Below, one piece after another: positions 47,038 to 63,976 of a DNA stretch of 64,000 nucleotides. The position numbers were made by a program, and so were the translations under genes. The stretch is from the NCBI RefSeq assembly GCF_900099995.1, contig NZ_FNCZ01000001.1, positions 1,178,001-1,242,000 of the forward strand, read 5' to 3'. This DNA is from Winogradskyella thalassocola (GTDB lineage: Bacteria; Bacteroidota; Bacteroidia; Flavobacteriales; Flavobacteriaceae). Numbering within the stretch: position 1 is the stretch's first letter; the number at the start of each line of letters is the position of its first letter. Under the pieces are notes generated by a model that was not told the DNA's origin, searched no databases, and worked only from the letters and a program-made list of their open reading frames with translations.

Positions 47038-47505
47038 ATGAAAAAAATATTAGGTACATTATTCGGATTGATTCTCTTTAGTTGTAGTTCTGCTGTTGAA
47101 GTTAATTACGAAGTTTTGACTTTTGAATTAGCTAAAGAACAAATGAATTTAGCTGAGTATTCAAACAGAAAAATTTTTGAAAACAAACAAGAGACTTCAT
47201 TGAGTAGTTTTGAATTAATAGTGCTCAATGAGTTGTTAGATTCAAGTATAAACACATATAATAAAAATCATCCAGATTTTAAAAATATTGATATTAAGGG
47301 ATACAATTTCTTCTATATTCCAACGAAAAACGATAAAAATGAAAAATGGATATTTATTTATGGTCTATGTAGTTATGAACCCGAATTGAATAGAACACTC
47401 AGTCAGTTTTTCTTAGTAGATGATGGTGGAAGTTGTTATATTCAAACAGTAATTAATTTGACTAAAAATGTCGAGGGTTGGATTGCTATTAATAGCAGAG
47501 CTTAA
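47038..47505 (+). CDS. lipoprotein of unknown function
   Basis: 155 residues with a lipoprotein signal (LILFSCSSA, Cys16). The mature part has mixed charge with no recognised domain. Its gene lies 3 bp after the phosphatase, and its final 4 bases overlap the convergent glycosyltransferase gene, marking the right edge of the plus-strand block. Confidence 0.65.
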   Translation: MKKILGTLFGLILFSCSSAVEVNYEVLTFELAKEQMNLAEYSNRKIFENKQETSLSSFELIVLNELLDSSINTYNKNHPDFKNIDIKGYNFFYIPTKNDKNEKWIFIYGLCSYEPELNRTLSQFFLVDDGGSCYIQTVINLTKNVEGWIAINSRA

Positions 47506-48284
47506 CAAACATACTTCTTATAATAAGCCAATAACTCATCAGCCGAAGCACCAAACCATTTCTTTACATAAATCGTCCAGAAGTGATATTGTAGTTTCCA
47601 AACACCATGTTTACGATAGAGTCGTGCTGAGGTTATTAATTTTTTATTGATGACTGTAAATTCATTCCGAGCATACAATTCATTAATCAGAATATTGTCT
47701 TCGTAGATAATATAGTTCTCATTATAACCACCAATGTCGTTAAATAGTGTTTTTGTAATAAACTGACTTTGATCGCCACCTCTACTAGCACGCCAAGAAA
47801 ATTGGGTAAGCCAACTGGCTAAACGTAACCACCAATGGTTGCTGTCAAATTGCATTCTAAAACAACCTGCTTGGTTCTCTTTTTGGACTTCATTTATAAT
47901 AAGTTGATCAAAGTCTTTAGGTGGGAAAGAATCGGCATGAAGAAAATACAGAATAGTTCCGGTTGCATGTTTTGCCCCCAAATTCATTTGTTTTGCTCTT
48001 CCTTTTTCTGAATGAATTAGTTGTATGTCAGTTCGAGTGAAATTCTTTTTTTGGAATTTTGTATCGAGAACATCTGAAAAAGCTTCTCGATACAATTCTT
48101 CACTGCGTTCAGAATCACTCGAAGTGACGAAGTCTTTAACAATGTCCAAAGTCCCATCCGTACTACCTCCATCAACCACAATGATTTCAGAAATGTTCTT
48201 AGACAACGAATTCTCAATTAAATGCGTTAACAATCGACCTATACTATCGACTTCATTTAAAACAGGAATAATAATACTAATCAT
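47502..48284 (-). CDS. GT2 glycosyltransferase, TIGR04283 (rSAM/selenodomain-associated transferase 2) type, with in-frame repeat insertion
   Basis: 260 residues. GT2 signatures are IIIPVLNEVDSIG, VVDGGSTDGTLDIV (about 36-49), EKGRAKQMNLGA (about 93-104) and LHADSFPP. Relatives have the first two blocks joined by a short strand. Here residues 53-86 are an extra 34 residues encoded by a palindromic element at 48027-48128; without them KDF runs straight into IQLIHSEKGRA with normal spacing. The frame is open, so the protein may still work. This transferase type co-occurs with ArsS-family radical SAM genes, as here, and probably handles a sugar in arsenosugar synthesis. Confidence 0.88.
   Translation of the reverse strand: MISIIIPVLNEVDSIGRLLTHLIENSLSKNISEIIVVDGGSTDGTLDIVKDFVTSSDSERSEELYREAFSDVLDTKFQKKNFTRTDIQLIHSEKGRAKQMNLGAKHATGTILYFLHADSFPPKDFDQLIINEVQKENQAGCFRMQFDSNHWWLRLASWLTQFSWRASRGGDQSQFITKTLFNDIGGYNENYIIYEDNILINELYARNEFTVINKKLITSARLYRKHGVWKLQYHFWTIYVKKWFGASADELLAYYKKYVC
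48027..48128 (-). repeat. 102-bp palindromic element inserted in frame in a glycosyltransferase gene
   Basis: Outer arms GTCAGTTCGAGTGA (48027-48040) and TCACTCGAAGTGAC (48115-48128) pair over 14 bp with one mismatch. Inner arms TTGTATCGAGAA (48059-48070) and TTCTCGATACAA (48084-48095) pair perfectly. The length is exactly 34 codons. Similar sequences are familiar to me as intergenic repeats in marine flavobacteria (from memory, not checked). No transposase is present, so any movement would depend on factors elsewhere. Confidence 0.85.
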
Positions 48285-63896: not shown

Positions 63897-63924
63897 CCTG
63901 TAAGGTTTTTAGAACCTGACAGGT
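63897..63924. repeat. copy of the CCTACAAGGTTTT palindromic repeat
   Basis: CCTGTAAGGTTTTTAGAACC then TGACAGGT follows the NTPase stop codon by one base. It is the third recognisable member of the family seen at 50175 and 50224, with compensated changes in both arms. Confidence 0.65.
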
Positions 63925-63976
63925 CTGGTAAGTAGATGTTCCGCATCACACAATCTCATTTGTGTTTGTATGGTGA

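What the first reader, a model, noticed from the sequence alone, without database searches (positions are those of the whole stretch)
48027..48128. 102-bp palindromic element inserted in frame in a glycosyltransferase gene
Nested inverted repeats define the ends exactly, the length is 34 codons, and removing it restores the normal spacing between VVDGGSTDGT and EKGRAKQMN. The inserted segment is hydrophilic and would form a surface loop. This parallels the Rickettsia palindromic elements that persist inside proteins, which I do not know to be described for flavobacteria. It implies that a noncoding repeat family can spread into coding DNA and be tolerated.
Basis: partly seen in the sequence, partly recalled or inferred. 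Interest (0 to 1): 0.8.

Follow-up and report, generated by a model that had tools for sequence, protein, structure and literature searches.

The report
Mobile DNA hairpin inside an enzyme
A small repeated DNA hairpin that normally sits between genes lies inside a sugar-transferring enzyme gene of a marine flavobacterium without breaking it, and relatives in many genera carry such repeats in the same loop, so the loop looks like a long-lived refuge for junk-like DNA inside a working protein.

Summary
In detail: 48027-48128 is a 102-bp, 34-codon nested palindrome in frame in a TIGR04283 glycosyltransferase gene (most likely Winogradskyella). It is an inverted pair of REP-type units (YGTC tag plus imperfect hairpin). 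The genome has 17 strict units (control 0): two are this insert, 13 are intergenic, 2 border masked DNA. Models built only from repeats outside this gene hit 47 of 224 homologues examined (two overlapping sets), 14 genera in one set; all 132 hits lie in this one loop. Of 14 full inserts 12 start at the same nucleotide. Other loops hold other repeats, half units or scars; 68 of 110 long loops show no hit. Within the genus, inserts are closer to each other than to repeats elsewhere; across genera only partly. The insert evolves like noncoding DNA (third codon positions no faster); stem covariation is modest. AlphaFold gives a disordered loop. Intragenic REPs and Rickettsia elements are known; the family-wide shared site is the new variant. 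One old insertion with many losses is slightly favoured over recurrent insertion, not proven.

The parts
47502..48284 (-). host gene: TIGR04283-family glycosyltransferase (Pfam Glycos_transf_2), 260 aa
   Evidence: glycosyltransferases as best fold matches; flank omega 0.06-0.19 in the pairs with finite dS
48027..48128 (-). inverted REP pair, 102 bp, 34 codons (V53-D86)
   Evidence: profile of 20 repeat pairs outside the GT gene: E 2.7e-20 here
48083..48128 (-). first REP unit (gene orientation): GTCA, CTTCGAGTG ... TTGTATCGAGAAG
   Evidence: unit model E 4.5e-11; strict pattern
48027..48071 (+). second REP unit, opposite orientation: GTCA, GTTCGAGTG ... TTGTATCGAGAAC
   Evidence: unit model E 5.9e-11; strict pattern
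48096..48114 (-). inner hairpin of the first unit
   Evidence: minimum-energy structure; helix 2
48041..48058 (-). inner hairpin of the second unit
   Evidence: minimum-energy structure; helix 4
48059..48095 (.). middle stem-loop (12-bp arms 48059-48070 and 48084-48095)
   Evidence: helix 3

Best explanation
An inverted pair of REP-type palindromes, a repeat class that otherwise lies between genes, sits in the loop between the second helix and the third strand of the glycosyltransferase. Shown: repeat identity, in-frame position, intact and constrained enzyme, repeats in the same loop in many genera. Inferred: the pair was inserted long ago, before at least part of these genera split, probably by a REP-mobilising (RAYT/HuH-type) reaction; it persists because the loop is surface-exposed and disordered and the pair has 3n length and one open frame; its nucleotides keep evolving as a REP (arms keep their sequence, inner hairpins vary) rather than as protein. 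Lineages then lose it by in-frame deletions, add further repeats, or let it decay into an ordinary long loop.
For: Models from repeats outside the GT gene hit 47 of 224 GT genes; 132 of 132 hits in the loop, 0 in reversed genes. Start at nucleotide 45 after DGG in 12 of 14 full inserts (7 genera), 51 in two (L047 read by eye). G000's insert is 0.85-0.97 identical to those of seven other Winogradskyella (0.80 in an eighth); copies elsewhere reach 0.77 (3 full copies, own genome) and 0.81 (7 in the genus). G154's is closer to 16 of 20 GT inserts than to any of 10 full copies in its own genome (best 0.83 v 0.72). Its right-unit type recurs in GT loops of G251, G234, L292, L297 but not in 29 other fetched G154 loci. 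Insert distance follows rpoB distance: Mantel r 0.84, p 0.0001, 14 genomes. Codon positions 1/2/3: insert 0.79/0.80/0.75, flank 0.755/0.854/0.542; position 3 more alike than in the flank in 119 of 120 non-independent pairs. Insert dS below flank dS in 7 of 9 REP-type pairs, e.g. 0.10 v 0.96. Half units and scars: L117, L192, L295, L055/L309.
Against: Across genera the closeness is weak for G000: only 1 of 12 inserts from outside the genus exceeds 0.81 and 4 exceed 0.77 (L288, a MAG without genus name, counted as outside). The arm type that in G154 is seen only in the GT loop exists in family B repeats of G173 and G131. REP presence needs at least 16 changes on the rpoB tree of 53 genomes and is no more clustered than shuffles (327/1000 as low). 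The repeat pool may drift with phylogeny too, so the Mantel result does not exclude repeated insertion; with one Winogradskyella and 8 other genomes r is 0.62, p 0.018. Two of 9 REP-type pairs have insert dS above the flank (L032-L281 0.25 v 0.15; L096-L102 0.14 v 0.11), L093-L103 is nearly equal. Only recognisable inserts entered the constraint tests. Covariation is modest: with the minimum-energy structure 8 both-sided cells v 3.3 (1/500), pairs changed on both sides 4 v 2.3 (52/500), pair types 14 v 13.0 (145/500). No transposase is tied to this repeat family.
Confidence: 0.5

Rival explanations
1. Insertion hotspot: REPs from each genome's own pool insert again and again in this loop, or overwrite older ones by conversion, because the target is attractive and the loop tolerates them.
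For: Several repeat classes occur here: family A, family B (7 genes), the ATCCTGAANNARGTTCAGGAT repeat (5 GT loops), the ACCTGACAGGT repeat (G013, G017); nested copies by eye in L088, L294, L297. L032 and L281 have nearly identical flanks (dS 0.15) but inserts 18 changes apart. Filled and empty states alternate on the tree. A copy between genes in G022 (L202) would encode a very similar 34-residue peptide.
Against: Within the genus, and between G154, L292 and G234, inserts are closer to each other than to the copies compared elsewhere.
Confidence: 0.35
2. The palindrome has a function at DNA or RNA level inside the gene (regulation of this enzyme, or a protein-binding site), which is why third positions are conserved.
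For: Flat codon-position rates; some both-sided pair changes; an intergenic copy beside trpF differs at 3 of 102 nt between two species whose TrpF proteins are 68% identical, third positions 63%, so such repeats can be conserved elsewhere too.
Against: Only 6 of 37 genus genomes have a full family A pair here (L043, half replaced, not counted) and the gene stays open in all 37, so the function cannot be essential; conversion or re-insertion gives the same pattern; only recognisable inserts were tested.
Confidence: 0.12
3. A protein-level adaptive loop whose DNA is palindromic by accident.
For: 40 of 62 and 28 of 48 long loops have no repeat hit; in four pairs of about 55-residue loops omega is 0.17-0.56.
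Against: The same DNA lies between genes elsewhere in the genome; repeat models hit the loop; no third-position excess in REP-type inserts.
Confidence: 0.03

Closest known systems
REPs inside genes (Di Nocera et al. 2013, PMC3733652; abstract passages and section 15 read)
   Same: Short tagged palindromes, mostly intergenic near gene ends, dimers in opposite orientation, some within genes, many encoding 20-30 residues; recB of two Xanthomonas hit at about the same site. The paper's CGTC-tagged superfamily includes Bacteroidetes, and 16 of 25 units here carry CGTC.
   Different: Here one glycosyltransferase loop is occupied in many genera, often from the same nucleotide, by several repeat classes, with scars and nesting; 8 of 25 own and 42 of 42 G154 units carry TGTC instead.
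Rickettsia palindromic elements (RPE)
   Same: Palindromic and in frame in otherwise intact genes (passages of PMC10969869). Di Nocera et al. equate intragenic R. conorii repeats with RPE-4 and RPE-6.
   Different: RPEs sit in many unrelated genes of one genome (44 insertions in R. conorii by the review); here one gene of this genome is hit, but family-wide. No RPE letters were compared.
REP/RAYT systems, Bacteroidetes subclass 2.6 (PMC6006769; passages and section 25 read)
   Same: Tag plus imperfect hairpin, paired units (general REP features recalled); a weak Y1 match in this genome is flanked by a palindrome of a type also seen in GT loops.
   Different: No Y1 gene was found beside the family A repeat itself in this genome.

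Membership tests
REP (repetitive extragenic palindrome) | many dispersed copies, mostly outside genes | tested here: met
   17 strict units, control 0; of the 15 outside the GT gene 13 intergenic, 2 bordering masked DNA
REP (repetitive extragenic palindrome) | short tag next to an imperfect hairpin | tested here: met
   YGTC in 24 of 25 own and 42 of 42 G154 units of the regex, GT copies included; outer arm base complementary in 86 of 86 family A units (shuffled 42.4) and 24 of 24 family B units (11.0); inner base 86 of 86 (shuffled 86.0, uninformative) and 23 of 24 (9.4)
REP (repetitive extragenic palindrome) | cognate RAYT (Y1 transposase) flanked by the same repeat | tested here: not met
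   two PF01797 matches in this genome, one below the cut-off; none with family A sequence in the fetched 3.3 kb. Other genomes were not searched. REP families without a RAYT are known (recalled)
Rickettsia palindromic element | in-frame insertion in otherwise intact genes | tested here: met
Rickettsia palindromic element | many genes of one genome hit | tested here: not met
   one gene among 17 strict units; second genes only seen in relatives (HsdM in G027; TrpF in G017)
Rickettsia palindromic element | sequence relationship to RPE families | not tested
   no RPE sequence was fetched or compared
MITE | terminal inverted repeats with target site duplication | tested here: inconclusive
   terminal arms present; no direct repeat seen by eye at the junctions; no empty site in a close strain was examined
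described Rfam RNA family | match above gathering score | tested here: not met
   insert; five other loci

The most novel reading that the evidence does not exclude
One REP pair entered this enzyme gene in an ancestor of many Flavobacteriaceae and has lived there since as noncoding structured DNA that happens to be translated; it is continually damaged and overlaid by other repeats, and in some clades (loops of about 55 residues with a KEAYxYI-like motif) its remains have become ordinary protein. That would be a traceable path from junk repeat to protein segment.
Probability: 0.3. Interest if true: 0.75.

Novelty: new variant of a known kind. Interest (0 to 1): 0.6.

Why it matters
Repeats inside proteins are usually seen as single snapshots. 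Here one loop of one enzyme offers a graded series across a bacterial family (full pair, half unit, scar, nested pair, long loop without signal, short loop), so persistence, loss and possible conversion of a mobile noncoding repeat into protein can be measured. It also shows that a translated segment can evolve under nucleotide-level rules, which misleads dN/dS and loop annotation.

Tried and rejected
Rejected: a chance palindrome; a known RNA family; an insertion unique to this strain; a pseudogene (intact ORF, flank omega 0.06-0.19 in the pairs with finite dS); a pure protein-level loop. The C18 transposase as mobiliser: no family A sequence beside it. Parsimony counts cannot separate gain from loss. 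My first structure for the pair count (14 both-sided cells v 6.6, 0/500; pairs 6 v 3.8, 41/500; types 17 v 15.7, 124/500) contained two pairs that I had added after looking at the sequences, and they gave 6 of the 14; the count was repeated without them. I first counted 4 differences in the trpF repeat; the script gives 3. The ATCCTGAANNARGTTCAGGAT repeat is rare: 14 matches in 9 of 13 genomes, 5 of them in GT loops. G154's second apparent intragenic unit (L370) lies in a probably spurious ORF beside the end of an opposite-strand ORF. Rows dropped: rpoB trees used 53 of 60 genomes asked (6 without a match, G008 split over contigs), and I had chosen the 60 to hold both states; L311 had no readable loop. 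No report of this in flavobacteria was found in listings of searches, which cover only the held open library.

Full report
1. The observation. The stretch 48027-48128 is a nested palindrome (outer arms 14 nt, 93%; inner arms 12 nt, 100%). In gene orientation it reads GTC...GAC, 34 codons, within the 260-aa ORF 47502-48284 on the minus strand, a TIGR04283 glycosyltransferase (225.7 bits, cut-off 182). Both strands fold better than all 200 shuffles as DNA and as RNA. The minimum-energy DNA structure is a four-way form: outer stem, a hairpin inside each unit, and a middle stem-loop.

2. What the element is. It is two opposed copies of a unit GTCA-[C/G]TTCGAGTG-(variable inner hairpin)-TTGTATCGAGAA[G/C]. 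The strict pattern occurs 17 times in the genome, never with the reversed control pattern. Two of the 17 are this insert; 13 of the other 15 are intergenic, 9 of them within 60 bases of an ORF of 100 aa or more, and 2 border masked DNA. In fetched repeats the outer arm bases are complementary in 86 of 86 family A units and 24 of 24 units of a second family B (shuffled means 42.4 and 11.0; the family A set includes GT copies), so each unit is an imperfect hairpin behind a YGTC tag. That is REP architecture. Family A is present in 32 of 35 and family B in 29 of 35 genomes that I chose, 0-52 family A units each, controls 0; genomes without a GT insert have them too. No Rfam family matches above its gathering score.

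3. Distribution in this gene. The gene was found in all 37 genus genomes of the search and in none of 23 others of the order at E<=1e-30. Of the 37, 18 have a long loop here and 19 a short one. In a family sample 213 of 299 genomes have the gene. I read the loop in 145 loci of the two searches, mostly from the top of the score lists and so enriched for this type, and in 79 of 80 named loci (the sets overlap). The named records suggest Winogradskyella (nearest 85% identity). Profiles built only from repeats outside the GT gene (20 pairs, 38 units, 25 family B units) hit 25 of 145 and 22 of 79 genes; all 132 hits fall in the loop, none in reversed sequences. 40 of 62 and 28 of 48 long loops (over 34 residues) have no hit. 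By the genus labels the 25 belong to 14 genera. Named genera with hits include Confluentibacter, Gaetbulibacter, Pontimicrobium, Aquaticitalea, Lacinutrix and Wocania. In 12 of 14 full family A inserts, from 7 genera, the element begins at nucleotide 45 after the DGG codon and in two at 51.

4. Other states. In G013 and G017 the left unit is replaced by another palindrome (AAACCTGACAGGTTTTT type). Five Winogradskyella carry ATCCTGAANNARGTTCAGGAT in the loop. L088, L294 and L297 look like a REP within a REP (by eye). G036 and L309 (W. algicola-type loop, perhaps the same genome) have a short loop whose DNA still holds the last bases of the REP (E 9.4e-4, just under the limit), G255 and G175 only a right unit, L295 half of a family B unit.

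5. History. G000's insert is 0.85-0.97 identical to those of seven other Winogradskyella and 0.80 to an eighth; copies outside the gene reach 0.77 in its own genome (3 full pairs) and 0.81 in the genus (7). Of 12 inserts from outside the genus, 4 exceed 0.77 and one 0.81. For G154, 16 of 20 other GT inserts (best 0.83) exceed the best of its own 10 copies (0.72), and its right-unit type has no second example in 29 other fetched G154 loci though four other GT loops have it; similar arms do occur in family B repeats of G173 and G131. Insert distances follow rpoB distances (14 genomes r 0.84, p 0.0001; 6 of the genus r 0.77, p 0.003; one of the genus plus 8 others r 0.62, p 0.018). These favour descent at the locus. 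Against a single origin stand at least 16 changes of REP state on the rpoB tree of 53 genomes, no more clustered than shuffles (mean 17.3; 327/1000 as low); long loops are somewhat clustered (13 v 17.5, 22/1000). L032 and L281 differ at 18 places in the insert though their flanks are nearly identical. Selection for an open frame could raise similarity: 7 of 20 pairs outside the gene have 3n length and an open frame.

6. Mode of evolution. In 16 inserts the mean identity at codon positions 1, 2, 3 is 0.79, 0.80, 0.75, in the flanks 0.755, 0.854, 0.542; third positions are more alike than in the flank in 119 of 120 non-independent pairs. Flank omega is 0.06-0.19 in the pairs with finite dS. Insert dS is below flank dS in 7 of 9 REP-type pairs (0.10 v 0.96, 0.16 v 1.15, 0.02 v 1.52 with G004, G034, G032) and above in two. 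In loops without repeat signal insert dS is 0.20-2.16 and omega 0.17-1.68 over five pairs. Pairing of the minimum-energy structure holds in 92.1% of cells, with 8 both-sided cells against 3.3 in shuffles (1/500), while two other measures are unremarkable (52/500, 145/500); a version with two pairs that I added by eye gives 14 against 6.6. An intergenic copy beside trpF differs at 3 of 102 nt between G017 and G360, whose TrpF are 68% identical. Only recognisable inserts were used, which biases toward conservation, and recent conversion or re-insertion would look the same as selection.

7. Protein. AlphaFold2 on 46 homologues gives mean pLDDT 87.0, with 57-63 and 69-83 below 50 between helix 45-57 and strand 86-91. 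The best solved matches are glycosyltransferases. So the repeat occupies a loop predicted to be disordered, outside the well-predicted core.

8. Other genes. In G027 a single unit lies in frame, in the same phase, in HsdM, where the query has 31 residues and 3khk five. In G017 TrpF carries TGTCATGCCGAACTTGTTTCG in frame where this genome has a shorter sequence.

9. Mobiliser. The genome has two PF01797 matches: a 156-aa gene without such repeats nearby, and a match below the cut-off (20.8 bits) in a protein with NHFH and YIHRNP, open in frame into coproporphyrinogen III oxidase and flanked on both sides by ACCT...AGGT palindromes like those in G013/G017 loops. A Pfam scan of that ORF listed only the oxidase at E<=0.001. 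For family A no transposase was found in this genome; mobilisation by such an enzyme is inference.

10. Comparison. Di Nocera et al. 2013 (abstract passages and section 15 read) describe REPs inside genes, including two Xanthomonas recB genes hit at about the same site, and equate intragenic R. conorii repeats with RPE-4 and RPE-6; their CGTC superfamily includes Bacteroidetes. RPEs are the Rickettsia case (passages of PMC10969869). The kind is therefore known. New, as far as the listings show, are the family-wide shared site, several repeat classes at it, and the nucleotide-level mode of evolution in a translated segment.

Noticed in passing
window 63900-63925: Copy of the ACCTGACAGGT-type palindrome that also flanks the RAYT-like gene of this genome and occurs in GT loops of G013/G017.
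   Followed up: partly
L062:1480-2970 (G000:C19): RAYT-like protein (weak PF01797 match) open in frame into coproporphyrinogen III oxidase, with similar palindromes on both sides; the downstream one lies in the open frame.
   Followed up: partly
L222 (G027), HsdM ORF: Half a REP in frame (VTSSDSRGTRELYREA) in a type I methyltransferase.
   Followed up: partly
L203 and L223 (trpF loci of G017, G360): A REP gives TrpF its last codons and stop; a different repeat lies in frame inside G017 TrpF and is missing in this genome.
   Followed up: partly
L299, L301, L303, L307, L315, L318, L345: GT loops of 55-56 residues with a KEAYxYI-like motif and no repeat hit, equal in length to REP-filled loops.
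   Followed up: no
L032 against L281: GT genes almost identical outside the loop but 18 changes in the insert: mosaic or replaced insert.
   Followed up: no
G154 loci L360-L389 and own loci: Base before GTCA is T in 42 of 42 units of G154 but C in 16 of 25 in this genome: lineage-specific tag.
   Followed up: no
L014 (G000:C19:334767): A separate repeat-like GTCATTCTGAACGCAGTGAAGAATC shares the inner hairpin of the insert's first unit.
   Followed up: no
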